Assembly (NCBI RefSeq): GCF_001894865.1 | Contig: NZ_BCXA01000003.1 | Location: 186,001-250,000 of the forward strand | Direction: 5' to 3' | DNA from: Rhodococcus maanshanensis NBRC 100610 | GTDB lineage: Bacteria > Actinomycetota > Actinomycetes > Mycobacteriales > Mycobacteriaceae | Length of the DNA: 64,000 bases | Shown: piece after piece, positions 5,921 through 40,768 of the stretch | How positions within the stretch are numbered: the stretch's first letter is position 1 | Layout: each line of letters begins with the position of its first letter | Translations under genes and position numbers: made by a program | Notes under the pieces: generated by a model | Database searches by the model: none | Told to the model about the DNA's origin: nothing | The model's input: only the letters and a program-made list of their open reading frames with translations

Positions 5921-6025
5921 GCACACCTCCATCCACCTGGATCGTAGGTGGCCAACGGTCCGGGATGCATTGCGGCGCGGTGCTAGGTTCGAGGTGGAAC
6001 ACTCCCCACGACAGCGGTGGCAGCC

Positions 6026-7516: not shown

Positions 7517-7561
7517 TCACCTGCCGGGCGGCGGATCGGTAGGTCTGGGATCGTGGGTGCC

Positions 7562-8335: not shown

Positions 8336-8564
8336 GGGGCAGCCAAAAGCAACCCAAGAGAGACCACATCGGCCGCGGCGTCCCGACGGATCTGGGTAAC
8401 GTCGGGGTTCGAGGATTCGATGAAAAGGGTGGCTCGGGCGTATTCCCCCATGAGAAGATTGGAAGATTCTCTACCCGGAGTTCTGCTCGAGGCTGACGGA
8501 CCTCGGCGGGCGTGCATCGATCGGAGTCGGTGCAGGTCAGCCCAGATTGCTAAGGCGGCGGCGG

Positions 8565-8939
8565 ATGGACACGTCGAATGGTTCCCACGGGGCCGGAAAC
8601 GGATTCTCGGCGGCGCAGCGCGAGCTCGAGGTGTTGCGAACCGAGCTCGACGATGTCGACCGGCATCTGCTCGAGGACGTCCGTGCACGCATCGAGGTGT
8701 GCACCCGGATCGCCAAGGTCAAGAGGCGGCATTCGATACCGATGATGCAGCCGCAGCGGGTCGGTTTCGTCCAGGACCGCGCGCAGACCTACGCGGTCGA
8801 GCACGAGCTGTCCCCAGACTTCTTCCGTTCGCTCTACGAGCTGCTCATCCGCGAGACCTGCCGAGTCGAGGACCTGATCATCGACGCGGACGGATCCGAG
8901 CCGGAGGGTGCGAGCGGTCCGTCCGGACGTGGGGGCTGA
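8565..8939 (+). CDS. papB: AroQ-type chorismate mutase, likely 4-amino-4-deoxychorismate mutase (PapB-like)
   Basis: A 124-residue all-helical protein with the AroQ pattern: LRTELDDVDRHLLEDV (helix 1 with the active-site Arg), ARIEVCTRIAKVKRRH (Arg and Lys of the dianion site) and a C-terminal helix LYELLIRETCRVEDLI. A stand-alone AroQ enzyme could serve phenylalanine and tyrosine synthesis. Directly upstream of an aminodeoxychorismate synthase and a prephenate-dehydrogenase-like gene, it is best read as PapB, which turns 4-amino-4-deoxychorismate into 4-amino-4-deoxyprephenate. ATG 8565 is preferred; a TTG at 8547 would add six residues. The next gene starts 5 bp after the stop. Residues alone do not separate the two substrate types, so the assignment rests on context. 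Confidence 0.8.
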   Translation: MDTSNGSHGAGNGFSAAQRELEVLRTELDDVDRHLLEDVRARIEVCTRIAKVKRRHSIPMMQPQRVGFVQDRAQTYAVEHELSPDFFRSLYELLIRETCRVEDLIIDADGSEPEGASGPSGRGG

Positions 8940-8944
8940 CGCCC

Positions 8945-11035
8945 ATGACTCCGACGCGAACGCTCCTCATCGACAACTACGACTCCTTCACCTACAACCT
9001 CTACAGTCTGCTGGCCGAGGTGAACGGGGTCCCGCCGACCGTGGTGACGAACGACGTCGACTGGGCGTCGGTGAACCTGGCCGACCACGACAACATCGTC
9101 ATCTCTCCTGGGCCGGGAAGGCCGGACCGGGACCGGGATTTCGGCATCAGCGCAGCCGCGATCACCGATGCCGATCTGCCCGTTCTCGGCGTGTGCCTTG
9201 GGCACCAGGGGCTGTGTCACCTGTTCGGCAGCCCGGTCCTGCCCGCACCGACGCCCATGCACGGGCGGGTGTCCGAGGTCCATCACACGGGGGAAGGACT
9301 GTTCGCGGGTATCCCGTCGCCCTTCCGCGCGGTCCGGTACCACTCCCTGATCGTCGAGCATCTCGATGATGAGCTCGAGGCGCTGGCCCATACCCGCGAC
9401 GGCCTCTTGATGGCGGTGCGCCACCGAGAGCGTCCGCTCTGGGGCGTCCAATTCCACCCGGAGTCCATCTGCACCGATCACGGCCGCGCGCTGCTGACCA
9501 ATTTTCGGGATCTGACCCCCCGAGCGCGGGCGGGCTCCCGTGGGGCAGCGGCGCGCCCGATGACCCTGCCGCTTGCCGAACCCCGCTATCGCGTCGACAG
9601 CGTGCGCATCGACAGGGCACTCGATCCGAAGGAGGTCTACGAGGTCCTGTTCGCACGCGGCCCGAACAGCTTCTGGCTTGACGGCAGCGCGGCATTGGAG
9701 CCGGATTCGCGGTTCTCCGTCATGGGCGACTGCTCCGGCCCACTGGCCGAGTACGTCACCTACAGCGTCACCGAGACCACAGTGCAGGTGCACCGGCAGG
9801 GGCAGCTCGCGCGGGAGGTACACACCACCTTCTTCGACTACATGGACAAGCAGTTGCGCGCTCGCGCGGTGGCCCCCCGCCCCGATCTCCCTTTCGGTTT
9901 CTGCCTCGGCTACGTCGGGTACCTCGGCTACGAGCTGAAGGCGGACACCTGTGGGCAGCTCGTCCACACCTCGCCGAATCCGGACGCCGCCGTCGTCTTC
10001 GCGGACCGAGCCCTTGTGCTCGACCACGAGGCCGACTGCTGCTATCTGCTCGCTCTCGACGACGGTTCCGACGACCAGGACGGCACCCGCTGGCTGACCG
10101 AGACGGCGGTCGCACTTTCGGAGTTCGATGTGGTCCCCCACGAGCCGGCGTCCCCGCCCCCGCTGGTCCATCTCGACGCCGACACCGAGCCGCGGTTCCG
10201 GCACGACCGGGACACCTATCTCGCGCTGATCGAGCAGTGTCTCAGCGAGATCCGGTCCGGCGAGTCGTACGAGGTGTGCCTGACCAACACCGCGACCCTG
10301 AACGGAGCGATCGACCCGCTGGATCGCTATGCGTGCCTGCGCGAGATCAGCCCGACCCCGTACAACGCGCTCCTGCAGTTCTCGGGGATCTCGGTCCTGA
10401 GCGCCTCGCCCGAGCGCTTTCTCCGGATCGGCGCGGACCGGGTGATCGAGTCCAAGCCGATCAAGGGCACCCGGCGGCGGTCGTCCTCGCCGGACACGGA
10501 CGAGGCCCTGCGCCGCGACCTCGGTGACAGCGAGAAGGATCGCGCCGAGAACCTGATGATCGTCGACCTGGTCCGAAACGACCTGTCCCGCGTCTGCCTG
10601 CCGGGATCGGTGCACGTCCCGAAGCTGTTCGACGTCGAGACCTACGCGCCTGTGCACCAATTGGTCTCGACCATTCGCGGCACCCTGCGGCCGGGCGTCT
10701 CGGTGGTGGACTGCATCCGGGCGACCTTCCCCGGAGGATCGATGACCGGCGCGCCGAAGGTGCGGACCCTCGAGATCCTCGACAAGCTCGAGGACGGCCC
10801 GCGCGGGGTCTACTCGGGTGCGATCGGGTACTTCTCGCTCACCGGCACCGCTGATTTCTCCATCGTGATCCGGACCCTGGTCGCCACGGCCGACGAGGTG
10901 ACGTTCGGTGCGGGCGGCGCGATCATGGCCATGTCCGACCCGGACGAGGAATACGAGGAGACGATGGTCAAGGCCGTCACCATGAAACGTTGCCTGTCCA
11001 TGAACACCGACCATCCGGACCAGGCCGGACCGTGA
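8945..11035 (+). CDS. papA: Fused aminodeoxychorismate synthase (PapA / PabAB type)
   Basis: A 696-residue bifunctional enzyme. Residues about 1-195 are a class I glutamine amidotransferase: the LLIDNYDSFTYNL start, Cys nucleophile C84 in GVCLGHQG, and His/Glu in QFHPES near residue 171. Residues about 210-690 are a chorismate-binding synthase domain with DLVRNDLSRVC, GSMTGAPK and GVYSGAIGY. The motif KPIKGT, about residue 506, carries the Lys typical of aminodeoxychorismate synthases; anthranilate synthases have PIAGT. It makes 4-amino-4-deoxychorismate from chorismate and glutamine. The enzyme could also feed folate p-aminobenzoate, but no ADC lyase (pabC) is adjacent, and a mutase and dehydrogenase are. 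The stop overlaps the next start (GTGA). Confidence 0.92.
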   Translation: MTPTRTLLIDNYDSFTYNLYSLLAEVNGVPPTVVTNDVDWASVNLADHDNIVISPGPGRPDRDRDFGISAAAITDADLPVLGVCLGHQGLCHLFGSPVLPAPTPMHGRVSEVHHTGEGLFAGIPSPFRAVRYHSLIVEHLDDELEALAHTRDGLLMAVRHRERPLWGVQFHPESICTDHGRALLTNFRDLTPRARAGSRGAAARPMTLPLAEPRYRVDSVRIDRALDPKEVYEVLFARGPNSFWLDGSAALEPDSRFSVMGDCSGPLAEYVTYSVTETTVQVHRQGQLAREVHTTFFDYMDKQLRARAVAPRPDLPFGFCLGYVGYLGYELKADTCGQLVHTSPNPDAAVVFADRALVLDHEADCCYLLALDDGSDDQDGTRWLTETAVALSEFDVVPHEPASPPPLVHLDADTEPRFRHDRDTYLALIEQCLSEIRSGESYEVCLTNTATLNGAIDPLDRYACLREISPTPYNALLQFSGISVLSASPERFLRIGADRVIESKPIKGTRRRSSSPDTDEALRRDLGDSEKDRAENLMIVDLVRNDLSRVCLPGSVHVPKLFDVETYAPVHQLVSTIRGTLRPGVSVVDCIRATFPGGSMTGAPKVRTLEILDKLEDGPRGVYSGAIGYFSLTGTADFSIVIRTLVATADEVTFGAGGAIMAMSDPDEEYEETMVKAVTMKRCLSMNTDHPDQAGP

Positions 11036-11988
11036 TCGGCACTGGATCTGCGCGGGCGTCGTCGCAGTTCCGCACCGCTGTGGTCGTCGGCGGCGCGGGA
11101 TCGGTCGGCGCGATGCTGGTGGCGTTGCTGCGCGGCGACGGGGCCCGGGTCCTGGTGGTCGATCCCCGCTGTGCGGCGCGCACAGACACCATCACCGACG
11201 CGGATGCCATGGCTGCGGACCTGACGGCCCCGACCGGGGAACTCCTCGAGGCGCTGCGCTCTGCCGACCTCGTGGTGCTGGCCGTGCCGGAGTCGGTCGC
11301 GCTGGCCGCCGCCCCCGATATCCCCGTGCTCATCTCCCCCGGCACCCTGCTCGTCGACACGCTGTCGGTCAAGACGCGGTTCGCGCGCGCGCTCACGGAC
11401 TCAGCGCCGGGGCTTCCGGCCGTCGGGGTCAACCCGATGTTCGCGCCGGACCTGGGTATGGGGGGCCGGCCGGTGGCCGCGGTCACCTATCGCCGGGGTC
11501 ATCAGGTCGACGGGTTCCTCGCGTCGCTGTCCGGATGGGGGGCCGAGATCGTCCGGCTCGCACCGGAACAGCACGATCGGATCGTGGCGGCGACGCAGGC
11601 GCTCACGCACGCCGCGGTATTGGCCTTCGGCCTTGCGCTTGCCGAGCTCGATGTGACGAGCGAGGAACTGTCCGCCACCGCGACCCCACCGCACACGGTG
11701 GCGCTGGCTCTGCTGGCCCGGATCGGGGTCGGGAACCCGGCGGTGTACCGGGATGTCCAGGCCGGGAATCCGTTGGCGGGCAGGGCACGCGACGCCCTGG
11801 CGGCGGCGGTGACCCGGTTGTCGGCTGTGGTCGAGCACGGCACCGAGGCCGATTTCGATGCGCTGGTGTCCGCCTCGCGTCGTCCTCTCGGCGACCGCAC
11901 CCGCCAGTACGGCGAGCTGTGCGCGGAGATCTTCCACGGCCTGGCATCCGAGGAGGTATCGGTGCGATCGGAGGTGATCGAGTCGTGA
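11032..11988 (+). CDS. papC: Prephenate-dehydrogenase-like enzyme, likely 4-amino-4-deoxyprephenate dehydrogenase (PapC-like)
   Basis: A 318-residue protein: an N-terminal Rossmann domain (VVVGGAGSVGAML, Gly motif at residues 20-25, acidic end VVDPR) followed by a helical dimerisation domain. It is predicted to oxidise and decarboxylate 4-amino-4-deoxyprephenate to p-aminophenylpyruvate with NAD+. Where prephenate dehydrogenases usually read HPMFGP, this one reads NPMFAPD, so the position of the usual His is Asn134. That fits a substrate bearing an amine instead of a hydroxyl, although this reading is my inference. The GTG start overlaps the papA stop by four bases (GTGA), a sign of translational coupling. 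No dedicated aminotransferase follows; a housekeeping aromatic aminotransferase would be needed to reach p-aminophenylalanine. Confidence 0.85.
   Translation: MIGTGSARASSQFRTAVVVGGAGSVGAMLVALLRGDGARVLVVDPRCAARTDTITDADAMAADLTAPTGELLEALRSADLVVLAVPESVALAAAPDIPVLISPGTLLVDTLSVKTRFARALTDSAPGLPAVGVNPMFAPDLGMGGRPVAAVTYRRGHQVDGFLASLSGWGAEIVRLAPEQHDRIVAATQALTHAAVLAFGLALAELDVTSEELSATATPPHTVALALLARIGVGNPAVYRDVQAGNPLAGRARDALAAAVTRLSAVVEHGTEADFDALVSASRRPLGDRTRQYGELCAEIFHGLASEEVSVRSEVIES
11970..11979 (+). promoter_or_regulatory. Strong ribosome binding site for the N-oxygenase gene
   Basis: GGAGGTGATC, a full-length match to the anti-Shine-Dalgarno sequence, lies inside the 3' end of papC. Its GGAGG core ends ten bases before the GTG at 11985, which overlaps the papC stop. 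It fixes the start and suggests high expression of the last gene of the operon. Confidence 0.7.
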
Positions 11989-12983
11989 CAGGTCCATTCG
12001 AAACGTACGGCGGGGTGTTCGGGTTCGAGGGCCTGCTGTCGCCGCCGTCCCTGCCCGAGTGCGACGAGTCGAATCCGGTCGAGAGCGCGGTGATCTGCAG
12101 CCTGGTCAGGAGCTGGCCGCGCCGGGCGACGGTGCGGCGGGTCGAACCCGAGCTCGACGACTTCTTCGATCCGGCCAAGGCCGACTTCCCCGAGGAACTG
12201 CTCCCCTTCCGCGAGCACGACCTGTACCGCTGCCTGGACGAGACGAAAAAGGACCGGCTGCGGGCCTGGGGATGGATCGCCTACAACAAGAACGTGATGG
12301 ACATCGAGCAGTTCGTGGTGAACCCGGGTTTCCAGTTGCTCTCCCGCGACGCGTTCGGCACCGGGCTCGGCGATCGCCACCGCGCGGCGGCGCTGCAGTC
12401 GATGGTCGACGAGGAGTACCACACCCTGATGCACCTCAATGCCAGCGCCGCGACGCGCAGGCACCGGGGTTGGCCGTTGCGCGAGGACGCCCTGCCCACC
12501 GCCCAGACGGTCCGGCGCCACCACGCGGCTGCCGTGGGCCACACCGATCCGCGGGCCGCCGCGCTGACGACCCTCGCCTTCACCACGGTCGCCGAGACGT
12601 CGATCAGCGCCTACCTGGCTCTGATGACCGAGGACGAGGAGGTGCAGCCCGTGAACCGGGCGACCGTGGCGCTGCACCGCCGCGACGAGCTCTGTCACTC
12701 CTCCATCACCGGCGATCTGGTGACGATGGTGTACGACGGCCTCGACGCGGACGACCGGCACACCCTGCTCGAGGGTCTGCGTGACGGGGTGGACGCGTTC
12801 ACCGGGAGCGATATGACCACCTGGCGGTCCATCCTCGAACGGGAAGAGGTCACCGGTGCGGGCACTATCATCGCGGACGTCACGGCGGACAGCGACCGCA
12901 AGCCGATGGTTCAGGACTGCAGTGCGATTCGGCGGCTGTGCGAGCACCTGGGCATCGCGAAGGACGTCCGCCCTGCGTGGTGA
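11985..12983 (+). CDS. AurF/CmlI-type diiron arylamine N-oxygenase
   Basis: A 332-residue helical protein. All seven metal ligands known from AurF (E101, E136, H139, E196, H223, E227, H230) have counterparts with conserved spacing: E109 (DIEQF), E143 and H146 (DEEYH), E204 (VAETS), H231, E235 and H238 (HRRDELCH). Family members oxidise aryl amines to hydroxylamines and nitro groups (p-aminobenzoate in AurF; the aminophenyl group in CmlI of chloramphenicol synthesis). Lying directly behind papA-papC with a GTGA overlap, its substrate is expected to be p-aminophenylalanine or a carrier-bound or peptide form of it. Whether it stops at hydroxylamine, nitroso or nitro, or leads to azoxy coupling, cannot be read from sequence. 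No electron-donor gene sits beside it. Confidence 0.9.
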   Translation: MTGPFETYGGVFGFEGLLSPPSLPECDESNPVESAVICSLVRSWPRRATVRRVEPELDDFFDPAKADFPEELLPFREHDLYRCLDETKKDRLRAWGWIAYNKNVMDIEQFVVNPGFQLLSRDAFGTGLGDRHRAAALQSMVDEEYHTLMHLNASAATRRHRGWPLREDALPTAQTVRRHHAAAVGHTDPRAAALTTLAFTTVAETSISAYLALMTEDEEVQPVNRATVALHRRDELCHSSITGDLVTMVYDGLDADDRHTLLEGLRDGVDAFTGSDMTTWRSILEREEVTGAGTIIADVTADSDRKPMVQDCSAIRRLCEHLGIAKDVRPAW

Positions 12984-13007: not shown

Positions 13008-13613
13008 TCAGCTGTGACCCTGTGCTGCTTCGGCTCTCTCGACGGCCGCGCGAGTGAGATCGATGAGTTTTGCAGTGTTCTCGGTGGTGGCCGGGTAGCC
13101 GGCCGAGGTCACTCCGACAACGAACTCGCCGGTGAGCGCGCCGTATCCGATGTGCGTGTCATCGCCCTGACTGACGATGCCTGCGAATGCCCTGTCACCG
13201 ATATCGACCGGTGCAGGCAGCGCTACGAAACCCTGGACGGCTTCACTTTTGTCGATCGCTTGCTCGAATGCAGTCGAGGCCGAGTCGGAGCTGGGATATC
13301 GATCTGCTGAAATGGTCACCTTCCTGCCGCCGTCCCCTTCGTAGATCGCCATTCTCGTCGCCTCGGGTGTGCCGGCAGCATCAGGGTTTTCGGTCGGCGT
13401 GTTCTGTCTGGCCATCTCCGGGAAGTGGTTCTGTACGACGTCCAACGTGACCAGAGCCTCCTGGGGCAATTGGTTCGTCCCGGATGTCGTGACGTGGTCG
13501 TGCGATTCGGCACCGGGCTGCGTGGGTTGCTGTCCGCAGCCTGATGCCAGCACGACTCCTGACAGGACGATCGAGAGCGTGACGATAGGTGCGCGACTGC
13601 CGATACGTCGCAC
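13008..13613 (-). CDS. Putative secreted lipoprotein
   Basis: A 201-residue protein if started at GTG 13611-13613, which has AGGGAG seven bases upstream; an ATG eight codons earlier (13637) lacks such a site. The N-terminus is Arg-rich, then hydrophobic (IVTLSIVLSGVV), then the lipobox LASGC with acceptor Cys26, so it should be exported and lipidated. The mature part is polar, with no recognised domain or catalytic motif; it resembles the many small envelope lipoproteins of Mycobacteriales only in general form. It lies 94 bp downstream of the NRPS on the same strand and converges with the N-oxygenase gene, so it may share the NRPS transcript. An accessory or immunity role is possible but unproven. 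Confidence 0.7.
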   Translation of the reverse strand: MRRIGSRAPIVTLSIVLSGVVLASGCGQQPTQPGAESHDHVTTSGTNQLPQEALVTLDVVQNHFPEMARQNTPTENPDAAGTPEATRMAIYEGDGGRKVTISADRYPSSDSASTAFEQAIDKSEAVQGFVALPAPVDIGDRAFAGIVSQGDDTHIGYGALTGEFVVGVTSAGYPATTENTAKLIDLTRAAVERAEAAQGHS

Positions 13614-13707
13614 ACGGTTTCGCTCCCTTTGTTGCACCTCGCTCGTTCCTCTCTCGTGGGACAGCCCACGGAACGGACGGTGGTCGGCGACCCGGCGACC
13701 GTGACGA

Positions 13708-16700
13708 TCAATGCGAGGAGAGGTACTCCTCGAGCGCCGGACCGACCACGGCCAACGAGTCGGGTTCGATCATCTGATTGTGGCCGCAGTCGACGCGGAC
13801 CTCACGGATCCCACCGGTGACCGCCGGACGCCACTCCTCCGGGGAATGCTCGCCGTTCCCGGAAGCGCCTGCCGCGCTGAAGAAGAGCAGGTCGCCGTCG
13901 AAGACCGCGGGACGGAACCGGTGCATGATCTCCGCCGAGTTGGTGAATCCGGCGCTGATCCGCTCGAGGTGCGCGGCGGTGAGGCCGGTGTGCTGCCCGA
14001 GGGACTCGTCGAGCAACTCGACCGCCCGCGCGTAGGTCAGCTCCTCCCCCTCAGGGGTGCTCAGATCCAGTCCGAGACCCTGCAGCAGCTCCTCCACGGT
14101 CAGCGCCTGTGGGATTCCGTCGGCGGTGACATAGCTGTCCATGATCGCGAGGGTTGCCACCTCGGCGCCGTCGCGTCGCAGCTCCACGGCCATGGCGTGC
14201 GCGATCACGCCGCCGAGGGACCAGCCGAGCAGGTGGTATGGGCCGTGGCCCTGGACCGCGCGCATCTCCTGCACGTACCGGTGCGCCAGTTGCTCGATCG
14301 ACTCGAAGCGCGGCCCACCGCTGATGAGCGGCAGTTGCAGGCCGAACGCGGGTCGGTCCTGGGCGAGGTGCTGGACCAGCCCGGCGTATCCCCAGCTCAG
14401 ACCGATTCCGGGGTGCACGCAGAACAGGGCCGGCTTGGAACCGCTTGGCCGCAGCGGGATCACCACCTGCAGGGCCTCGTCGGCGGCCGACTGCGCCGAC
14501 TCCTCGTCGAGGCGGTGCGCCAGCCCGGCCGGAGTCGGATCGAGGAAGATCGACTGCAGCTGGATCCGGTCCCCGAACCGCTCGCGGAGTTCGGTGACGA
14601 CCCGGGTGGCCACGATCGAGGTGCCCCCCAGATCGAAGAAGCTGTCGTCGACGCCGACGCGTTCCACACCGAGCACCTCGGCGTAGGCCTCGGTGATCGC
14701 GAGCTCGGTCGGTGTGACCGGCGCGCGGTACTCGTCGGTGCGAGCACCGAACTCGGGTGTGGGCAACGCCTTTCGGTCGAGTTTGCCGACGGGCGTCATC
14801 GGGATCGTGTCGAGGACCACGACGGCCGAGGGCACCATGTGAGCCGGCAGTCGGCTGGAGGCGAAGGACCTGACCTGGGCGGGCACCAAGGTGCGGCCCT
14901 CCACCGGGTGTACGTAGGACGCCAGCAGCGTGTCCCCTGACGGTCCTGTCCGCCCGATGGTGGCCGAGAACGCGATGTCGGGGTGGTGCGTCAGCACGGT
15001 GTCGATCTCACCGAGTTCGATGCGGAACCCATGGACCTTGACCTGGAAGTCGCTGCGGCCGACGTACTCGATGGTGTGATCTCCGGTCCGCGGGTCGCGC
15101 TGCCACCGGACGATGTCACCCGTCCGGTACATCCGCTGCCCCGGGTCGCCGAACGGGCTCGCCACGAAGCGCTCGGAGGTCAGCCCGATCCGGTTGTGGT
15201 ACCCACGGGCCAGCCCCAGGCCGAGGATGTACATCTCGCCGGGCACCCCGACCGGCACCGGCTGCAGGTGCGCGTCGAGCACGACCTCGCCGAATCCGAT
15301 GGCCGGATTGCCGATGTTGACCGGCACGCCACTCTCCATCGGGTCGCTGACGCTGGCCTGAATGGTGGTCTCGGTCGGCCCGTAGCCGTTGAACATCCGG
15401 CGTTCTCGCGCCCAGACGTCCACCAGGTCCGGCGGGCACGCCTCTCCTGCGACCGCGAGCACCTGCAGCTCCGTCAGGTCCCGGTCCTCCATCGAGGCCA
15501 GGGCGGTCGGGGTGATGAAGGCGTGGGTGACGTGCTCGCGCCGGAGCAGGTCCTCGAGGTCGGAGCCGCCGTACACGGTCGGCGGCACGATCACCACGCC
15601 CGCGGACGTACCGAAGGCCATCATCAGTTCGAACACCGAGGCGTCGAAGCTCGGCGACGCCAGGTGCGAGACCCTCGATCGTTCGGTGACCCCGAACCGG
15701 CTGTGTTCCTCCGCAGTGAGGTTCGCGATGCCCTGATGGGTGACGATGACGCCCTTGGGCAGGCCGGTGGATCCGGAGGTGTAGATCAGATAGGCCGGGT
15801 GGGCGAGGTGCAGGGGGACGGTCCGGTCCGCGTCGGTGACAGGGGACGCGGACATCGCGGACATGGACGCGAGGAAGTCGGGGGCGTCCATCACTAGCCA
15901 CGGCATCGTGTCGGGAAGCTGGCCCCGCCGCGATTCGACGGTCAGGCCCACGACGGCGCGGGAGTCGACGAGCATGTACTCGATTCGCTCCGGCGGGTAG
16001 GTCGGGTCGACGGGCACGAACGCGGCGCCTGCCTTCGCCACCGCCCAGATCGACACGATCTCCTCGATCGAGCGCGGCAGGCCGAGCGCGACGAAGGTCT
16101 CCGGGCCGACCCCGGACTCTCGAAGCACGCGTGCCAACCGGTTCGAACGATCGTCGAGTTCGCGATACGTCAGGTGCTGGTCCTCGAAGGACAACGCGAG
16201 CGACTCGGGTGCGGCGGCCGCGGCCGCGGACAGGATCTCCGGCCACAGTTGCGGCGCACCGCCCTCGGGCCCGAGCGCGGGCGCCATATCGGACATCTCG
16301 GCCTCGCCGAGGATGCCGATGTTGCCGATCGCCCCGCGTGGGTCGGCGGTCACCGAGTCGAGAATCCGGACGAAGCGGTCCGCGAAGGCGTGCACGGTCT
16401 CGGGGTCGAACAGGTCGGTGGCGTAGTCGATTCCGCCGCGTACACCGGCGGGTGTGCCGTCCGCCGCGATGTTCTCGGCGAGGATCAGTTCCAGGTCCTC
16501 CTTCGCGACCCGGATGTCGAGGTCGACGCCGTCGACATCGAGGCCGGGCAGCGCGAGGTGGGGCTGTTCGGTGTTCTGGAACTCCAGCGCGACCTGGAAG
16601 AGGGGCTGGTACGACGTGGATCGGACCGGGTTCAGCGCCTCGACGATCCGCTCGAACGGGAGGTCGGCGTGCGCGAACGCCGCGAGATCCGTCTCCCTGG

Positions 16701-17674
16701 CCGATTCGAGCAGTTCGATGAAGCCGGCGTCGGGATCGACGTGTGTGCGCAGCACCAGAGTGTTGACGAACATGCCGATCATCTCGTCGAGTTCGGCCTC
16801 GCCCCTACCGGCGATCGGGGTTCCGATGGCGACGTCGTCGGTGTCGCCGAGCCGGGCCAGCAGGACCGCCAGCGCCGCGTGCATCACCATGAAGACCGTC
16901 GAATTGTTCTCCCGCGCCAGGTCGCTGACGCGGGCGTGCAGCCCGGCGTCGATCGCGAACTCGATGCGGTCGCCCCTGAAGGTCTGCTGCAGCGGGCGTG
17001 GGCGGTCGGTCGGCAGCGCGATCACGTCCGGCAGGCCCGCGAGGTTCTCGGTCCAGTACTCGAGCTGCGCGGTGATCAGCGACGCGGGATCGTCCTCGGC
17101 GCCGAGCATGCGGTGCTGCCAGAGGGTGTAGTCGGCGTACTGGACCGGCAGCGGCTCCCAGTTGGGTGCCGAGCCGTTGACACGGGCGTCGTAGGCGACC
17201 ATCACGTCCCTGGCGAGTGGGCCGAGCGAGGAACCGTCGGCGCAGATGTGGTGCACCACGATGGTCAGGACGTGCTCGAGCTCGCCCAGCCGGAGCAATG
17301 CGGCCCGCACCGGTACCCCGGCGGTGACGTCGAATCCGGCACCCGCGAGTTCGATGATGCGCGAGTTCAGTTCGCCGTCGCTGACGTCGATCGTCGTCAG
17401 GGCGGGCAGGACCTGGTCGGTTGGCACCACGTGCTGTGTCGGTTCGCCGTCCTCGACGGGGAACATCGTGCGCAGCGACTCGTGCCGGTCGAGCACGTCC
17501 CGGATCGCGGCGCCGAGCGCCGAGGTGTCGAGGCGACCGGACAGCTTGACCGCCAGCGGGATGTTGTACGCGGGCGAGGTGGTGTCGAACTGGTTCAGGA
17601 ACCACATCCGCTTCTGGGCCAGTGACACGGGGATCACCGACGGTCGCTCGGTCGCGGTGAGCGGGGGCCGGACA
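13708..17674 (-). other. NRPS module 7: C-A-T plus thioesterase
   Basis: C7 has HHICADG near residue 7776. A7 reads D-A-F-F-A-A-G-I-Q, with small residues at 299 and 301. T7 has GGTS near residue 8653. The C-terminal type I thioesterase (about 8700-8958) has the nucleophile motif GWSLGG near residue 8789 and a late His in DCGHNQM. It releases the product by hydrolysis or by cyclisation on the Ser or Thr hydroxyl. Confidence 0.82.
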
Positions 17675-20600
17675 TCGGCGCCGGTGCCCTCGGGCGAGAG
17701 CAGAGCCGCCAGTGCGGCGATGGTCGGCGACTCGAAGAGCGTACGGACGCCGATCTTCGCCCCGAGCGTGGTCCCGAGGCGTGCCGTGACGCGGGTGGCG
17801 ATCAGCGAGTTCCCGCCGAGGTCGAAGAAGCTGTCGTCGACGCCGATCCGATCGACACCGAGGACCGCCGCGAACACCTCGGCGATGGTGCGCTCGAGTG
17901 GCGTGCCGGGTGCACGGTATTCGGTGGCGGTGCCGAGGAACTCGGGCTCCGGCAGTGCCGACCGATCGAGCTTGCCGACGTGGGTCAGCGGGATCTCGTC
18001 GATCAGGACGACGCTCGACGGCACCATGTGGGACGGCAGCCGGTTCGCCAGGTGATCGGTCAATTCCGGCACCCGCACCGGGACGTCTTCCTTCGGAACC
18101 ACGTAGCTGGCCAGCACGGTGTCGCCGGACGGACCGGGCACGCCGACGGTCACTGCGAAGCTCACCCCCGGGTACGCCATGATCTCGGAGTCGATCTCGC
18201 CGAGCTCGATCCGGAAACCGCGCACCTTCAGCTGGAAGTCGCTGCGCCCGATGTACTCGACCGTGCGTTCGCCGGACGCGGGCTCCACCCGCCAGCGGAC
18301 GATGTCGCCGGTGCGGTACATCCGATCCCCCGGCTCACCGAACGGATTCGCCACGAACCGGCCCGCGGTCAGCGCACCCCTCCGGTGGTACCCGCGCGCA
18401 AGTCCGACACCCGCGATGTACAACTCACCCGGCACCCCGGCGGGAACCGGCCGCAGGTACCCGTCCAGCACGACCTCGGACACCCCGCGGATCGGTCCGC
18501 CGAGCGTGATGGTCTCACCCACCGTCATCGGATCGCTGATGTTGGCCATGATGGTGGTCTCGGTCGGGCCGTACGCATTCGTCAGCTTCCGTCCCGGCGC
18601 CCACCGCGTGACCAGCTCCGGCGGGCAGGCCTCACCGCCGAAGGCCACGTGCTGGAACTCGACGAGTCCACCCGGATCCACGGTCGCCAGCGCGGCCGTC
18701 GTCACGAACGCGTGGGTGACTCCCTCGACCTTGATCAGGTGCGCGAGTTCGGCGCCGCCGTACACGGACTGCGGCGCGATCACCATCGTCGAACCGAGCC
18801 CGAACGCCTGCAGGTACTCGAAGACGGCGCCGTCGAAGCTCGGTGTCGAGAAGTGCAGGGTCCGCGACATCGGCGTCGTGGCGAACCGCTCCCGCTGGTC
18901 GGTGGCGAAGTTCTCCAGGCCGACGTGGGTGACCACCACGCCCTTTGGTGTTCCGGTCGATCCCGAGGTGTAGACGATGTAGACGGCGTTGGTCATGCTG
19001 ATCGGCGAGACCCGGTCCGCGTCCACCACCCGACGGGTGGATTGGGTCGCCAGTTCGGCGGTGCACTCGGGCCCGTCGAGGAGCAGCCACGGCACGGAGT
19101 CGGGCAGTCGCCCGCGATCCGCGGTCATGGCGAGCCCGAGGGTGGCGCCGGAGTCGGTGAGCATGTGCTCGATCCGGTCCTGCGGGTAGTTGGGGTCGAC
19201 GGGCACGAACGCAGCGCCGGTCTTGGCCACCGCCCAGACCGCGAGCACCGATTCGATCGAACGCGGGATGCCGAGAGCGACATAGGTTTCCGGTCCCGCA
19301 CCCCTCGCGATCAACAGGCGCGCCAACTGCGTCGAGCGCAGATCGAGCTCGAGATAGCTGACGTGGCGTCCCTCGTGGACCAGCGCGGTCGCCTCCGGGC
19401 TCGCGGCCGCCGCGTCCTCGAACAACTCCGGGAGCGTCCTGGCCGAGACGCCCGGCCTGCCGTTCACCGGGACCAGGGTGGCGTACTCGTCCGCGGAGAG
19501 CAGGTCCATCCGGGCGAGCTGCAGGTCCGGGTAGGTTGCCATCGCGACAAGTACCCGCCGGACCCGGGCCGCGATGGCCTCCACGGTGTCCACGTCGAAG
19601 GCCGTGGCGAGGTATTCGAGCTTCAGGTGCAGGTTCTCCTCGCCGGAGGCGACGATGGCCAGCGGGTAGTGGGCCGAATCCCGCCCGTCGAAGCCCGCGA
19701 TGCGCATGCCCGCGATATCGGTCTGTTCGGTCAGGCCGGCACGATCGATCGGGTACGACTCGAACACGGTGAGGGTGTCGAATGCGGCGGCGGGTGCGGC
19801 GACCTTCTGGATGTCCGCCAGTCCGAGGTAGTGGTGGTCGAGCAGCGCGACCTGCTCGTGCTGGACCCGGTCGAGCAGCCCGCCGAGGCTCTCGTACGGA
19901 TCGAGTACGACACGGACCGGCAGGGTGTTGATGAACAGGCCAACCATCGATTCGATGCCGGGGATCTCCGGCGGCCTGCCCGAGACCGTGCTGCCGAACA
20001 CGACGTCGTCGCGGCCGGTCAGCGCGCCGAGCACGACTGCCCAGGCGGCCTGGAGCATTGTGTTGAGGGTGAAGCCGCGCTCGCCCGCCACGAGCCGAAG
20101 CAGGCTGGTCTCCGCCTCGGACAGCGTCAGCCCGATCTCCTGGCTGCCCGAATGCGGACGACCGTCGTTCGTTGGCGCGAGCACCGTCGGTTCCTCGACG
20201 TCGGAGAGTGCCTGTCGCCACGCCTCGGTCGACTGATCGACGTCGCGCCGGGACATCCAGACCAGGTAGTCGCGGTAGGGGTGCACGGGCGGCAGTACCG
20301 AGGCATCCCCGTCGGTCGCGTACAGGGTCAACAGGTCCCGGATGACGAGCGGTGTCGACCAGCCGTCGATCAGGATGTGGTGGTTCGTCATCGTCAGCCG
20401 GTACTCGTCCTCGTCGAACCTGACGAGCAGCAGGCGCAGGAGCGGCGCGGACGACATGTCGAACCTCGTCGCCCGGTCGGCGGCCACGACCTCGGCGTGG
20501 GCGTCCTCGCGGTCCTCGGACGCCGTCTCGGTGAGATCGATTTCGCGCCAGGGCAGCTCGACGCGATCCGCGATGACCTGGACGGCGGCACCGCCCTGTT

Positions 20601-23600
20601 CGGCGACGAACGCCGCCCGCAGGTTCGGGTGCCGATCGAGCAGCGCCTGACCGGCCCTGCGGATGCGGTCCGGGTCGACCGTGCCCCGCAGGGTCATGGT
20701 GAGTTGAACGAGATACGGGTCGACCGACACGTCCGACATCTGCGCGTGGAAGAGCAGTCCGGACTGCAGCGGGGAGAGCGACCAGACGTCGGCGAGGCCG
20801 GGGAACCGGCCCTCGAGTCGTTCGATGGTGCCCTGTTCGAGTTCCACAAGGGCGAGGTCCGACGGCGTGAGCCCGCCCGCGGTTGGTGCCGCGGCGTGCC
20901 GGGCCAGCGCGGTCAACGCCTCGGCCCACAGGTCCGCCAGCTCTCGCACCTCGAGGGCCCGCAGCACCCGGGTCGGGAAGGACCAGGTCGCGCGCAGCCG
21001 CGGCCCGTCAGGGGAACCGAGGGTCAGCGCGTTGATGTCCAGTACCGACGCGACCGGCAGCTGCTTGCTCGGGGCGTCGTCGAGGTCGGTGTCGGTGACC
21101 GGGATCCAGCCGGTGCCGGGGTCCGGTGTCCCGGCCCCGTCCGTCATCCGGCCGAGGTAGTTGAAGCTGATCTGCGGCGCGGGCCGTTCACGCAATTCGT
21201 CCGCGTGTTCGCTCAGGTACCGGAGCATCCCGAAGCCGATACCGTGATCGGGAATCGAGAGCAACCGTTCCTTGACGAGCTTCACCGCGGTGCCCGCACC
21301 CGGCCCGCCCGCGAAGGCGTCCTCGAGATCGATGTCGGACAGGTCGAGCCGAACCGGGAAGATCGTGGTGAACCAGCCCACCGTCCGCGACAGATCGGCG
21401 CCCGCGATGACGTGATCCTCGCGGCCGTGGCCCTCCAGGTTGACCACCGTCGCCGACACCTCTTCGCCGCGGGCGGAGCGCCACCGGGACACGGCCATCG
21501 CCAGTGCGGTGAGCAGACCGTCGTTGACGCTGCCGTGGAATGCCTCCGGGAGTCGCGTCAGCAGCGACTCCGTGACCTCGCTCGGGAGCTCGACGGTGAT
21601 CTTCTGCACGGTCTCGTTGGTGTCGACCACCGGATCCAGTGCGCGCGAACCGATCACCGGATCCGGACCGGCCAGCATCCGCCGCCACAGTCCCATCTCC
21701 CCCGACCTGGCGGTTCCTGCCTCGGCAAGGGCATGCGTCCAGCGGCGCATCGAGGTCCCCACCGGGGCCAGGACGGGATCCTGACCCGCGCGGATCTGTG
21801 CCCATGCCGACGCCAGGTCCGGCACCAGCACTCGCCACGACACCCCGTCGATCACCGCGTGATGCACCACCATCAGCAGTCGGCCCGAGGCGTCGGGTTC
21901 GCCGCTGTCCGAGGGGTCGAACCAGACCACCTGCAGCATCGTTCCCGCCCGCGGGTCGAGCCTGTCCGCCGCGGCGTCGAGTTCGGCCGCCGCGATCGCG
22001 GAGAACTCGGCGCCCTCCACGCCCGCGACCTCGACCCTGCTCAGTACCGACGCGGCGGGCACCGATCCCGGTGCCGTGACCGTCATCATCGGTTCCCGGT
22101 CGGAATCGCGCTGGATCAGCCTGGACCGCAACATGTCGTGGTGGTCGAGAACCGCCTGCAGTGTGCGCTCCACGGTGTCCGCGTCCGCTCCCGGCGGCAG
22201 CGTCAGCAGTGCCGTCTGGGTGTAGCGGCGGATGTCCGCGGCCTCCCTTCCCGCGGCCCCGGCCCGGTCGGTCAGCCAGTGCATGATGGGGGTCAACGGC
22301 ATGTCGCCGACTCCCCCGCCCGCGAGCTCGTCGAGCACGATCGCCTCGCCGGCCTCGGCCGATTCGGCCACGATGGCGAGCGCGGCGACCGTCTTGTGTT
22401 CGAAGACCTCTCGCGGAGTGATCGCGACACCGGCAGCCTTCGACCGGGACACCAGCTGGATCGACATGATGCTGTCGCCGCCGAGCGCGAAGAACGAGTC
22501 CTCCACGCCCACCGAGTCCAGACCGAGCACCTCGGCGAACAGCGTCGCCAGCACTGTCTCGGTCTCGGTGCGCGGTGCACGGCCGGCATGGACCCTGGTC
22601 GCGAAATCCGGTTCCGGCAGGGCCTTCCGGTCCAGCTTGCCGTTCGCCGTCAGCGGCAATTCGTCGATCACCAGCACCGCGGCGGGCACCATGTGCGAGG
22701 CCAGTTGGGTGCCCGCGAACTCGAGCACCTCGGTCTCGTCGGGGCGTGCCCCTGGCTCCGGGACCACATAGGCGATCAACCGGTTGCCCCGCGGCTCCTC
22801 GCGCACCAGGGACACGGCCTGTGCGATGCCAGGGAACCGCAGCAGGACCGCCTCGATCTCGCCGAGCTCGATCCGGAACCCGCGGATCTTGACCTGGAAG
22901 TCGCTGCGGCCCAGGTACTCCAGTTCGCCGTCCCGATTCCAGCGGGCCACGTCACCGGTTCGGTACATCCGTGCACCGGGGGCGCCCATGGGATCTGCGA
23001 CGAACCGCCCGGAGGTCAGCGCCGCCCGGCCGAGGTAACCACGCGAGACCTGATCTCCCGCGACGTACATCTCCCCCGTCACCCCGGGCGGGACCGGGTG
23101 CAGTCGCCCGTCGAGCACCGACACCCGCAGACCGGGAATCGCCCGGCCGATGACGCTCGCCGAGGCCTCGGCGGCGTAGGCGCGGTCGAGCGGGAGATGG
23201 CTGACGTGCACCGTGGTCTCGGTGATGCCGTACATGTTGACCAGCGCAGGCGACGTGTCGCCGTGCCTGCTGTACCAGCGGCCCAGCTGACCGAGGTCGA
23301 GCGCCTCGCCGCCGAAGATCACGTAACGCAGGGCCAATTCGGGCGCGTCCCCCGTCGCCAGCCGATCGGCCTCGGCCAACTGGTAGAACGCGGTCGGCGT
23401 CTGGTTCAGCACCGTCACCCGCTCGCGCCGCAACAACTCCAGGAACATCTCCGGCGAGCGGGCCGTGTAGTAGTCGACGACCACCAGCGTGCCGCCGTAC
23501 AGCAACGGTCCCCACAGCTCCCACACCGAGAAGTCGAAAGCGTAGGAGTGGAACATCGTCCACACGTCGGAGTCGTCGAACCCGAACTTCTGCTCGGTGT

Positions 23601-26600
23601 TCGCGAAGAGGGTCAGCACATTGCGGTGTGCGACGACGACACCCTTCGGGCGCCCGGTCGACCCGGAGGTGTAGATCACGTAGGCGGTGTCCGCAGGATC
23701 CAGCGGGGCCAGCCGGTCGGTGTCGGTCACGGGCGCGCCGGATTCCGCGGCGAGCCGGGTGACCAGCTCGTCCGAATCCAGTACCAGGACGGGCACATCG
23801 GTGCCGGGCAGTCCGTCGAGGTCGGAGCCGGTTGCGATCACACAGATCGGGGCCGCGTCCTCGAGCATGAAGGTGAGTCGGTCGGACGGGTAGGTGACGT
23901 CGACGGGCAGGTAGCCTGCGCCGGACTTGACGACGGCCAACAGCGCCACGACCAGGTCGTTGGTGCGTGGCAGCGCGACCGCGACGAGGGATTCGGGTCC
24001 TGCGCCCCTGGCGATGAGGACCCGGGCCAGCCGGTTGGCCCGGTCGTCGAGTTCCGCGTAGGTCAGGGTTTCGCCGTCACAGGACACGGCGACCGCTCCC
24101 GGCCGCCGTGCGACCGTGCTCGCGAACCGATCCACGAGGGTGCCCGCCGGTGCTGGCACGCCTGCGACATTCCACAGCGAGGCCATCGCGTCACGCTCGG
24201 CCGGGTCGGTGATCTCGATGTCCCCGACCGCGCGGTCGGGATCCGTTGCCACCGCGTCGAGGAGGGCACACAGTCGCCCAGCGAAGCCGTGCACGGTGGC
24301 CGGGTCGAACAGATCATCGGCGTAGGTGAACACCGCCGAGATCCCGGCGGGACTGCCGTCCTCCCCGTACCGCTCGGCCAGTGTCAGCTGCAGGTCGAAC
24401 TTGGCAACGGCCAGGTCGAGATCGAGCCCGTCCGCGGTCAGTCCCGGCAGTTCCAGGTGCGGCGGCTCGTTGTTCTGGAACTCGAGCAGGACCTGGAACA
24501 ACGGCGAGTGCGCGGTGGACCGTTCGGGGGCGAGCGCCTCGACGAGTCGCTCGAACGGAAGGTCCGCATGCGCGAACGCGGCCACGTCGACCTCGCGAAT
24601 GCCGTCGAGGAGTTCCCCGAAGGAGGCCCGCGGATCCACCTCGCTGCGCAGCACGAGGGTGTTGACGAACATGCCGACCAGATCGTCGAGCGCCGCCTCG
24701 CCGCGACCCGCGATCGGGGTGCCGACGGCGATGTCGGTGGTTCCCGAGAGCTTCGCGAGCAGCAGTGCCAGGGCGGCGTGGCCTGCCATGAACATGGTCG
24801 AGTTGTGTTGCCGTGTCACGTCGAGGAGGGCGCGGTGCACCTCCGGGGGCACGGTGAACTCGATTCGTTCGCCGTGGAAGCTCTGGTACACCGGTCGAGT
24901 TCGATCGGTCGGCAGCGCGATCACCTCGGGCAACCCCGAGAGGACCTCCGTCCAATGGTCGAGCTGGCGCGCGAGCAGGGAGTCGGGGTCTTCCTCGGAG
25001 CCGAGGACGCGGTGTTGCCAGAGCGCGTAGTCGGCGTACTGCACCGGCAGCGGGGACCACGGTGCCCTGGCGCCGGACACCCGCGCGGTGTAGGCGGCCA
25101 TCACATCCCTTGCCAGTGGGGACATCGAGAAACCGTCGGCGCTGATGTGGTGTACGACGAGCACGAGCACGTGCTCGTCGGGGCCGATGCGCAGCAGTGT
25201 CGCGCGGACGGGCACCGCGTCGGTGACATCGAACCCGCCGGAGATCAGGTCGGAGATGACCTGCGGCAGTTCGGACTCGGTGGTGTCGAGCGCGGTGAGG
25301 TCCGGTACCGCTGTCGCGGCGGGCACGATCACCTGGGTGGGCTGACCGTCGACCATCGGGAACAGGGTGCGTAGCGATTCGTGCCGGTCGACGACATCGG
25401 CGACGGCCTCGCGCAGGGCCTCGGTGTCGAGGTGCCCGGTCAGGCGCACGGCGAGCGGGATGTTGTACGCGGCTGACTCGGTGTCGAACTGGTTGAGGAA
25501 CCACATCCGCTGCTGCGCCAACGACAGCGGGAGTCGCTCGGTCCGGTCGCCTGCCTCGAGCGGTGGGCGCCGGTGCTCACCGTCGGACAGGGCGACCCGC
25601 TGCGCGAGGGTGCCGACGGTTGGCGCCTCGAACAGGGCGCGGACGCTGAGGTCGATCTCGAGTGCGGACGACAGCCGCGCGGTGACGCGGGTCGCGCTCA
25701 GCGAGTTGCCGCCGAGTTCGAAGAAGCTGTCGTCGAGGCCGACGCGGTCGACGCCGAGGACCGCGGCGAAGACATCGGCGACGGTGCGTTCGAGCCCCGT
25801 GGTCGGCGCCCGGAACTCGGTGGTGGATACGAACTCCGGCGCGGGCAACGCGGCACGGTCCAGCTTGCCGACCGGGGTCAGCGGGATGTCGTCGAGGATC
25901 ATCACGGCCGAGGGCACCATGTGCGCGGGCAGCCGGGTCGACAGGAACTCGCGGACCTCGGCCGGCTCGATCCGGTGTCCGGCGGCGGGCAGCACATACG
26001 ACGCCAGGACCGCGTTGCTCGCCGCTCCGTGCCCGATCGTCACGGAGAAGTCGATGCCGTCGTGCTCACCGAGGGCGCTGTCGATGTCGCCCAGTTCGAT
26101 GCGGAACCCGCGGACCTTGACCTGGAAGTCGCTGCGCCCGATGTACTCGATCACGAGGCGGCCGGACTCCGGGGAGCGCACCCACCGTACGACGTCGCCG
26201 GTGCGGTACATCCGATCGCCGGGGCCGCCGAACGGATTCGCCACGAATCGACCGGCGGTCAACGCGGTTCGACGGTGATAGCCGAGTGCCACGTTGTGCC
26301 CCGCGATGTACAGCTCGCCCGGCACCCCGATCGGGACGGGACGCAGGAAGCCGTCCAGCAGGATCTCCTGGATGCCGCGAAGCGGTCCGCCGATGGTGAC
26401 CGGCTGGTCCACCGAGACCGGATCGCTGAAGTTCGTCACGATCGTGCCCTCGGTCGGGCCGTAGGCGTTCCACAGCCGCCGCCCGGGGGCCCAGCGCGGC
26501 ACCAGCTCCGGCGGGGCGGCCTCGCCGCCGAACAGCACGTCCTGGAAGTCGTCGAGGCCGGCGGGGTCCATCCCCGACAGCGCCGAGCTGATGATGAAGC

Positions 26601-40584: not shown

Positions 40585-40768
40585 CGCACTCCCCAAGCGA
40601 GTAGACAGAACTCGAAGGTGTATTCGGCGCAGTTTGCGCACTATTTTGTATGTCCGGATTTGTGTCGGCCGCGTTACACAGGGTATCGGCCGCGGACTGC
40701 TATTGTCGTCCGTTTCGGCCTTTGGTTCCATGTCCTGCGCGTTCGCGCGTAATGGCCCCTGGTCCGGC

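What the first reader, a model, noticed from the sequence alone, without database searches (positions are those of the whole stretch)
11985..12983. N-oxygenase keeps all seven AurF diiron ligands at conserved spacing
E109, E143, H146, E204, H231, E235 and H238 line up with AurF E101, E136, H139, E196, H223, E227 and H230 with an offset of only 7-8 residues. The enzyme should therefore be a competent peroxo-diiron oxygenase rather than a decayed homologue, and makes an N-O bond likely in the product.
Basis: partly seen in the sequence, partly recalled or inferred. Interest (0 to 1): 0.72.

Follow-up and report, generated by a model that had tools for sequence, protein, structure and literature searches.

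The report
CmlI-type N-oxygenase beside lipopeptide synthetase
A Rhodococcus gene next to a giant antibiotic-type peptide synthetase encodes an intact iron enzyme that very probably oxidises the amino group of p-aminophenylalanine, so the natural peptide, whose structure was predicted from genes, may carry an overlooked nitrogen-oxygen group.

Summary
The ORF at 11985-12983 is an intact AurF-family diiron enzyme. The seven ligands are there, but 'E109' is misnumbered: residue 109 is Gln and the ligand is E108. By sequence and predicted fold it is closer to CmlI (chloramphenicol) than to AurF. Ligand retention alone proves little: all five distant AurF-family paralogues of the same genome also keep the seven, and published homologues with the same set stop at nitroso (AzoC) or oxidise hydroxylamine (DnfA). 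Context is stronger: the gene ends a tight papB-papA-papC-nox operon, a p-aminophenylalanine (PAPA) route plus N-oxygenase; papC adjoins it in 69 of 69 Rhodococcus/Gordonia loci.

Humimycins are lipopeptides predicted from genes and drawn without PAPA or nitro groups. papB-papA adjoin this NRPS type in two arrangements, but not in the R. opacus/erythropolis group. Which residue, if any, carries the N-O group is unknown. The enzyme is a new member of a known kind; the pathway is a testable variant.

The parts
11985..12983 (+). NOX: CmlI/AurF-family diiron arylamine N-oxygenase, 332 aa, ligands E108 E143 H146 E204 H231 E235 H238
8565..8939 (+). papB: chorismate-mutase type II domain, putative 4-amino-4-deoxychorismate mutase (start chosen by coding score)
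   Evidence: Pfam CM_2 58 bits, cut-off 27; start
8945..11035 (+). papA: fused glutamine amidotransferase + chorismate-binding aminodeoxychorismate synthase, 696 aa
   Evidence: Pfam GATase and Chorismate_bind (run on the longer ORF 8420-11035); TIGR00553 pabB 348 bits, cut-off 328
11032..11988 (+). papC: prephenate-dehydrogenase-like, putative 4-amino-4-deoxyprephenate dehydrogenase; GTGA overlaps with papA and NOX
   Evidence: Pfam PDH_N and PDH_C over cut-off (run on 10990-11988); sequence at the overlaps
13708..40731 (-). 9007-aa NRPS, 7 adenylation domains, convergent with the operon; Ser-type A2, Thr-type A5, epimerase motifs after modules 3 and 5, C-terminal thioesterase
13008..13637 (-). 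209-aa ORF with a lipoprotein-like start between NOX and the NRPS; no Pfam or NCBIfam match, role unknown
41359..41658 (+). rbpA (part scanned), landmark of the conserved locus
   Evidence: Pfam RbpA
42573..44147 (-). apolipoprotein N-acyltransferase (Lnt), landmark; an 'N-acyltransferase' is described in humimycin clusters
   Evidence: Pfam LNT_N, CN_hydrolase
44188..45705 (-). amidohydrolase, landmark; an 'amidohydrolase' is described in humimycin clusters
   Evidence: Pfam Amidohydro_3

Best explanation
NOX is a working diiron (ferritin-like) arylamine N-oxygenase of the CmlI type. PapA, PapB and PapC convert chorismate to 4-amino-4-deoxychorismate, 4-amino-4-deoxyprephenate and 4-aminophenylpyruvate; a host aminotransferase gives L-p-aminophenylalanine (PAPA). 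The reduced diiron site of NOX (E108, E143, H146, E204, H231, E235, H238) binds O2 as a peroxo species and oxidises the para-amino group of PAPA, or of a carrier-bound or finished peptide that contains it, to hydroxylamine, nitroso and most likely nitro. The N-oxygenated aryl residue goes into a nonribosomal peptide; here the most likely partner is the convergent 7-module humimycin-type lipopeptide synthetase. Shown: the genes, ligands, predicted fold, operon and synteny. Inferred: PAPA as substrate, depth of oxidation, timing, and partner NRPS. The confidence below is for enzyme and substrate class; the partner NRPS alone is about even.
For: Nearest solved relative is CmlI: 255 bits against 146 for AurF; Z 38.3 and 1.1 A over 269 residues against Z 34.2 and 1.8 A over 281 for AurF. 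Seven ligands kept in the window and 79 of 80 named homologues. dN/dS 0.19. PapB, PapA and PapC are identified above Pfam cut-offs and closely coupled. papC lies beside NOX in 69 of 69 Rhodococcus-type and Gordonia loci; none was detected in 11 Streptomyces/Nocardia loci, 8 of which pair NOX with papA only (two of the 11 are short contigs, and a divergent papC could be missed). cmlD/cmlC/cmlB/cmlI are the same four functions in chloramphenicol (PMC4249514, passages). NRPS link: an NRPS-type A domain within the stretch held in 58 of 64 Rhodococcus-type loci; papB-papA adjoin the humimycin-type NRPS also in 10 of 10 group-g6 (Rhodococcoides-type) loci fetched, where papC-NOX lies elsewhere.
Against: No assay. 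The seven ligands also occur in 5 of 5 functionally unknown paralogues. In the R. opacus/erythropolis group (g23) the humimycin-type NRPS stands without the cassette (0 of 10 stretches L248-L257, nine of g23 and one Antrihabitans; also G084) and in the two g23 genomes of that group read (G084, G194) the cassette lies beside other NRPSs. In Gordonia no NRPS A domain lies within 10 kb of the operon in 4 of 4 loci with the full operon, nor in the 69-kb G116 region. Four of the five non-Ser/Thr pockets of this NRPS vary between species, and none could be assigned to PAPA or p-nitrophenylalanine.
Confidence: 0.7

Rival explanations
1. NOX oxidises PAPA as said (this rival shares that half), but the product goes in trans to another NRPS of the same genome, or is released as a small corynecin- or chloramphenicol-like metabolite; the convergent humimycin-type NRPS is only a neighbour at the rbpA-lnt locus.
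For: Cassette and humimycin-type NRPS are apart in the R. opacus/erythropolis group; in group g6 papC-NOX lies elsewhere, beside a different giant NRPS in the two read in full (G040, G190); Gordonia has the operon without an NRPS nearby. antiSMASH calls a corynecin cluster in R. erythropolis (PMC10819586, passages). The window genome has at least seven further regions with NRPSs.
Against: papBAC-NOX lies within 20 kb of this NRPS type in 6 of 6 genomes held of the window's genus and in 13 of 13 group-g10 genomes with a listed orthologue (coordinates), and papB-papA adjoin it in 10 of 10 group-g6 loci. The adjacent NRPSs end in a thioesterase-type motif where the end was seen, and no reductase-type motif was found by pattern; no CmlA-type hydroxylase was found in 7 genomes, although that search had no positive control.
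Confidence: 0.35
2. The enzyme stops at hydroxylamine or nitroso, as AzoC does, so the product has a C-N=O, N-OH or azoxy group rather than nitro.
For: AzoC keeps the same seven ligands and is 53% identical to CmlI, yet yields nitroso (PMC6783550, passages).
Against: Nearest solved relative is CmlI, which goes to nitro; residues that set the depth of oxidation could not be tested here.
Confidence: 0.2
3. NOX acts on p-aminobenzoate, as AurF does.
For: Same fold family and ligands; PapA makes the shared precursor aminodeoxychorismate.
Against: papC is beside NOX in 69 of 69 Rhodococcus/Gordonia loci, which points past p-aminobenzoate. AurF R96 aligns with N103 here and with Asn in CmlI (alignment; that R96 binds the carboxylate is recalled, from no call). 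NCBIfam's AurF model scores 178 against its cut-off of 620.
Confidence: 0.05
4. A diiron oxidase with a non-aryl nitrogen substrate, as DnfA (hydroxylamine to N2).
For: DnfA keeps the same seven ligands (PMC9478400, passages).
Against: DnfA is under 30% identical to CmlI by its authors, NOX is 42% identical to CmlI in the aligned core, and the operon supplies an aryl amine.
Confidence: 0.03

Closest known systems
CmlI with CmlB/CmlC/CmlD (chloramphenicol, Streptomyces venezuelae)
   Same: Diiron N-oxygenase fold and ligands; same four functions papA/papB/papC/N-oxygenase (PMC4249514, passages).
   Different: Four genes form one coupled operon; no CmlP-type A-T-reductase beside it, the neighbour is a 7-module thioesterase-ended NRPS; no CmlA found, without a positive control.
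AurF (aureothin) and AzoC (azoxymycin)
   Same: AurF-type diiron enzymes, seven ligands (PMC6783550 and PMC8840469, passages; in the latter Ala scanning of the seven abolished AzoC activity).
   Different: AurF works on p-aminobenzoate; it is more distant from NOX in sequence and fold than CmlI is.
Obafluorin pathway (ObaC, Pseudomonas)
   Same: PAPA-derived aryl amine, AurF-related N-oxygenase, NRPS product (PMC5490192, passages).
   Different: ObaC is proposed there to act on 4-aminophenylpyruvate, ahead of a transaldolase step; no transaldolase was looked for here.
Humimycin A synthetase IupU (R. equi) and humimycin clusters
   Same: 7 modules, Ser2 and Thr5, D-residues 3 and 5, flanking N-acyltransferase and amidohydrolase (PMC5550956, passages; PMC12024397, Table 1).
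   Different: Published humimycins were predicted and synthesised; humimycin A is drawn as Tyr-Ser-D-Tyr-Phe-D-Thr-Val-Val with no PAPA or nitro residue; MbtH is beside the R. equi NRPS but not in this window.
Corynecin cluster of Rhodococcus (Undabarrena et al. 2021, not held)
   Same: Nitroaryl products reported from Rhodococcus; such a cluster is called in R. erythropolis (PMC10819586, PMC9557007, passages).
   Different: Corynecins are p-nitrophenylserinol derivatives, not heptapeptides; whether that cluster is the papBAC-NOX locus could not be checked.

Membership tests
AurF/CmlI diiron N-oxygenases (PF11583) | Pfam AurF domain over curated cut-off | tested here: met
   182.5 bits, cut-off 29.6, residues 33-323
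AurF/CmlI diiron N-oxygenases (PF11583) | Seven metal ligands (4 Glu, 3 His) at conserved spacing | tested here: met
   E108 E143 H146 E204 H231 E235 H238
AurF/CmlI diiron N-oxygenases (PF11583) | Fold of CmlI/AurF | tested here: met
   Z 38.3, 1.1 A, 269 residues to 5hyh; Z 34.2 to 2jcd; next family listed at Z 15.1
AurF proper (NCBIfam NF045603) | Score over the curated cut-off of 620 | tested here: not met
   178.1 bits: not filed as AurF itself
Arylamine N-oxygenase (activity) | O2-dependent oxidation of an aryl amine to nitro | not testable with these tools
   needs enzyme assay
PAPA pathway (papA/papB/papC) | Aminodeoxychorismate synthase, CM-type mutase and prephenate-dehydrogenase-type enzyme together | tested here: met
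   NCBIfam prephenate dehydrogenase models hit papC below their cut-offs
Humimycin-type NRPS | Seven modules with Ser at 2 and Thr at 5 | tested here: met
   A2 DVWHFSLVD and A5 DFWNIGMVH; the Ser/Thr meaning of these codes is recalled; the R. equi NRPS beside NOX has the same plan and is the only such one among that genome's NRPSs read
Humimycin-type NRPS | D-residues at 3 and 5 (epimerases) | tested here: met
   E-type motifs at NRPS aa 3659-3891 and 6290-6522; humimycin A has D-Tyr3 and D-Thr5
Humimycin-type NRPS | Amidohydrolase and N-acyltransferase in the cluster | tested here: met
   description in PMC5550956
Humimycin-type NRPS | MbtH in the cluster | tested here: not met
   no MbtH in the window; the genome's two lie on C16 and C41; in R. 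equi one lies just upstream of the NRPS. I therefore say orthologous in plan and sequence, not the humimycin cluster itself
Humimycin-type NRPS | A domains for Tyr1, Tyr3, Phe4, Val6, Val7 | tested here: inconclusive
   codes extracted but no calibrated predictor; the A1, A3 and A4 codes here differ from those of R. equi
Humimycin-type NRPS | Starter condensation domain (N-acylation) | tested here: inconclusive
   six condensation stretches in the N-terminal part that holds four A domains; subtype not tested
Chloramphenicol/corynecin pathway | CmlP-type A-T-reductase NRPS beside the cassette | tested here: not met
   adjacent NRPS ends in a thioesterase; the rest of the genome was not searched for one
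Chloramphenicol/corynecin pathway | CmlA beta-hydroxylase | tested here: inconclusive
   0 of 7 genomes, but no control genome rang

The most novel reading that the evidence does not exclude
Humimycin-type clusters encode a PAPA pathway and a CmlI-like N-oxygenase that were left out when humimycins were predicted. The true natural lipopeptides would carry a p-aminophenylalanine-derived, N-oxygenated residue (p-nitrophenylalanine most likely) at a position now drawn as Tyr, Phe or Val, and one PAPA/N-oxygenase cassette would serve different giant NRPSs in different Rhodococcus lineages, split between two of them in Rhodococcoides.
Probability: 0.4. Interest if true: 0.8.

Novelty: new variant of a known kind. 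Interest (0 to 1): 0.6.

Why it matters
Humimycins are cited as antibiotics found by predicting a peptide from gene sequence and synthesising it (PMC5550956, PMC12024397, passages). One review passage lists them among products isolated from Rhodococcus, but the same review says that the structure was predicted from gene clusters (PMC7502451). If their clusters also build and N-oxidise p-aminophenylalanine, the natural molecules differ from the synthetic ones in a residue that may matter for activity. It would also add a large group of nitroaryl (or nitroso) peptides to the few known, and CmlI homologues with a new kind of substrate. One gene deletion with mass spectrometry, or one set of A-domain assays, can decide it.

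Tried and rejected
Ligand conservation as proof of reaction: rejected, because 5 of 5 distant paralogues keep all seven (an earlier pass, read a wrong frame for L004 and was repeated). Decayed homologue: rejected. p-Aminobenzoate as substrate: disfavoured. Assigning the PAPA position from A-domain pockets: failed. The A7 code DAFFAAGIQ is constant in all 10 cassette-linked NRPSs of this type read in genera g1 and g10 (one of them, G004, read with five A domains in one ORF), but a similar code (DAYLVAGVQ) is in an unlinked NRPS of the same genome (contig C31), and DALFVGAVV-type codes also occur in unlinked NRPSs. Finding a CmlP A domain as yardstick in 16 Streptomyces, Nocardia and Gordonia loci: four weak hits in three loci, none judged a CmlP-type protein. 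CmlA search: silent, control silent too. No phage family match. MbtH by motif: none in the window, but the motif also missed a real MbtH in R. equi, so only the family search counts.

Papers not held: Undabarrena 2021, the CmlI structure paper PMC4994471, Chu 2016 PMC5117632. No paper joining humimycin to N-oxygenase, CmlI, aminophenylalanine or nitrophenylalanine was seen in two searches (one search listed 10 of 21 papers; one search listed 6 of 6). In PMC5550956 the words oxygenase, prephenate, aminodeoxychorismate and chloramphenicol do not occur in the main text; it says that humimycin clusters sometimes hold a dehydrogenase, which may be papC. The library covers only open-licence papers. 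Papers were seen as passages, except PMC12024397, of which I also read section 3 and the first parts of sections 4 and 5.

Rows dropped: the structure alignment used 66 of 80 named loci plus the window; 13 were left out only to shorten the list and L125 because its matched stretch holds a stop at residue 319 of 323; the ligands of these 14 were read afterwards and are all kept. The 80 named loci are the best of 136 confirmed. Of the 59 of 80 loci with an A domain of 150 bits or more, L126 is probably not an NRPS and is not in the 58 of 64. The other 58 rest on an A-domain score and on tblastn hits and were not inspected one by one. Several of the 64 loci lie on short contigs, so missing papA/papB there is not proof of absence. 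In group g10, 13 of 14 sampled genomes have a listed orthologue of the NRPS end at 69-70%; the fourteenth (G192, 79% complete) has only a weaker best match in the tally.
Full report
Observation. Frame 1 of 11985-12983 (+) is an open frame of 332 residues beginning GTG. The phmmer alignment to AurF chains pairs 108, 143, 146, 204, 231, 235, 238 with AurF 101, 136, 139, 196, 223, 227, 230 (read). The best solved relative is not AurF but 5hyg/5hyh at 255 bits, against 146 bits for AurF; the fold library names 5hyg/5hyh as CmlI. Pfam gives AurF, 182.5 bits. NCBIfam's AurF model falls far below its cut-off (178 of 620), so this is a family member but not AurF itself.

Structure. An AlphaFold2 model from 67 sequences without templates has mean pLDDT 86.6 and pTM 0.84; residues 1-23 and 47-51 are low. 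VIA-align puts it on CmlI with Z 38.3, 1.1 A over 269 residues, 42% identity, model 61-329 on chain 62-330, that is a constant offset of +1 through all seven ligands; AurF follows at Z 34.2 and 1.8 A, and the next family listed, methane monooxygenase, at 15.1. Foldseek's own superposition gave the same top hits with a larger rmsd of about 6 A.

What the ligands prove. All seven are kept in the window and in 79 of 80 named homologues. The exception, L109 in Gordonia paraffinivorans, has Tyr at H146, no papB or papA within 10 kb and no PapA orthologue found in its genome (best 35%; completeness not given); this looks like natural decay. But the five other AurF-family proteins of the window's genome, 15-20% identical to NOX, also keep all seven. 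In print, AzoC has the set, loses activity when these residues become Ala (PMC8840469, passages) and yet makes nitroso, not nitro (PMC6783550, passages), and DnfA has the set and oxidises hydroxylamine to N2 (PMC9478400, passages). So the ligands speak for competence as a diiron oxidase, not for the reaction. dN/dS of 0.19 against R. oryzae shows purifying selection.

Operon. Upstream on the same strand lie a chorismate-mutase-type gene (8565-8939), a fused aminodeoxychorismate synthase (8945-11035) and a prephenate-dehydrogenase-like gene (about 11032-11988). papA/papC and papC/NOX overlap as GTGA, and papB/papA are 5 bases apart. These are the functions named cmlD, cmlB, cmlC and cmlI in the chloramphenicol cluster (PMC4249514, passages). 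Of the 80 named homologues (best of 136), 64 are Rhodococcus-type (with Prescottella, Rhodococcoides, Antrihabitans), 5 Gordonia and 11 Streptomyces/Nocardia. papC is next to NOX in 64 of 64 and 5 of 5, and was detected in 0 of 11, two of which are short contigs (L116, L119) and where a divergent papC could be missed. The full set papB-papA-papC-NOX is in 39 of 64 and 4 of 5; 24 of 64 show papC-NOX only and 1 of 64 papA-papC-NOX on a 4.4-kb contig; 8 of 11 Streptomyces/Nocardia loci pair NOX with papA alone. In a sample of 20 whole-genome loci papC-NOX was together in 20 of 20 and papB-papA in 18 of 20. A homologue was found in 6 of 6 genomes held of the genus and in 65 of 201 of the family, one of these very weak. 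The context therefore points to p-aminophenylalanine, not p-aminobenzoate. AurF R96 aligns with N103 here and with Asn in CmlI; the role of R96 is recalled.

The neighbour. The 9007-aa NRPS at 13708-40731 (-) has seven A domains, ten condensation-type stretches and a C-terminal thioesterase. A2 and A5 have the pockets DVWHFSLVD and DFWNIGMVH, which I know as Ser and Thr codes (recalled); epimerase-type motifs follow modules 3 and 5. Humimycin A is beta-hydroxymyristoyl-Tyr-Ser-D-Tyr-Phe-D-Thr-Val-Val (PMC12024397, section 3 and Table 1). Humimycin clusters are described with an amidohydrolase, an N-acyltransferase and MbtH, sometimes a dehydrogenase, and IupU of R. equi is named as the humimycin A synthetase (PMC5550956, passages). 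An MbtH lies just upstream of it, with Lnt and the amidohydrolase beyond. By elimination it is the humimycin A synthetase; this is an inference, since the original paper was not held. The window's NRPS is its orthologue (69% over the last 899 residues), without an MbtH in the window.

Is the link functional? For: papBAC-NOX lies within 20 kb of this NRPS type in 6 of 6 genomes held of the window's genus and in 13 of 13 genomes of group g10 with a listed orthologue, of 14 sampled (coordinates). In all 10 group-g6 (Rhodococcoides-type) genomes with a strong match, rbpA-papB-papA adjoin the humimycin-type NRPS while papC-NOX lies elsewhere, beside another NRPS in the two read in full. An A domain lies within the stretch held in 58 of 64 Rhodococcus-type loci. 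Against: in ten stretches, nine of group g23 (R. opacus/erythropolis and relatives) and one Antrihabitans (L248-L257), no pap gene was found beside the orthologue; nine reach about 10 kb past it and L257 only 3.8 kb. In G084 the orthologue sits at the rbpA-Lnt locus at 5.16 Mb, while the cassette is at 0.95 Mb beside a different NRPS. In Gordonia the full operon has no NRPS near it in 4 of 4 loci. The genome of the window has many other NRPSs, one on contig C31 with the same seven-module plan. Shared ancestry means that these counts are not independent. The simplest reading is a PAPA/N-oxygenase cassette that feeds NRPSs, often but not always the humimycin type, sometimes perhaps in trans.

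Pocket analysis did not name the residue. A1, A3, A4 and A6 pockets vary between species; A7 (DAFFAAGIQ) is constant in the 10 linked NRPSs of g1 and g10 read and resembles DAFFVAGIE of the linked R. ruber-type NRPS (66% in the core), but a similar pocket occurs in the unlinked C31 NRPS (68%). This is a lead only.

Verdict. The enzyme is intact and CmlI-like (about 0.9). Action on a PAPA-derived aryl amine is likely (about 0.8). Incorporation of the N-oxygenated residue in the adjacent heptalipopeptide is about even (0.4-0.5). No held paper was seen that notes the cassette next to the humimycin synthetase.

Noticed in passing
L238-L247 (10 group-g6, Rhodococcoides-type loci) and L043, L045: The pap operon is split: rbpA-papB-papA stay beside the humimycin-type NRPS while papC-NOX lies elsewhere, beside another giant NRPS in the two read in full.
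   Followed up: partly
L109:10001-10930 (Gordonia paraffinivorans): NOX homologue with ligand H146 changed to Tyr, papB/papA missing nearby and no PapA orthologue found in the genome: a likely natural decayed case.
   Followed up: partly
L102, L110, L111, L117; G116 region L167-L169 and L049: Gordonia carries the full papB-papA-papC-NOX operon without an NRPS A domain within reach, beside housekeeping genes (der, cmk, scpAB in L111).
   Followed up: partly
G000 contigs C24, C17, C11, C13 (L001-L005): Five further AurF-family proteins of unknown function, 15-20% identical to NOX, all with the seven ligands.
   Followed up: partly
G000:C31:78696-103289 (L198, L199): A second 7-module NRPS with Ser-type A2 and Thr-type A5, 63% identical over the last 897 residues, with no pap genes found in the stretch read around it.
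   Followed up: partly
window 6017-7516 and 7553-8335: FMO/Baeyer-Villiger-like monooxygenase and metallo-beta-lactamase-fold gene just upstream of papB; the pair is kept in the R. oryzae relative (L030), the second alone in L033/L034.
   Followed up: no
window 13008-13637 (-): 209-aa ORF with a lipoprotein-like start between NOX and the NRPS, no Pfam or NCBIfam match.
   Followed up: no
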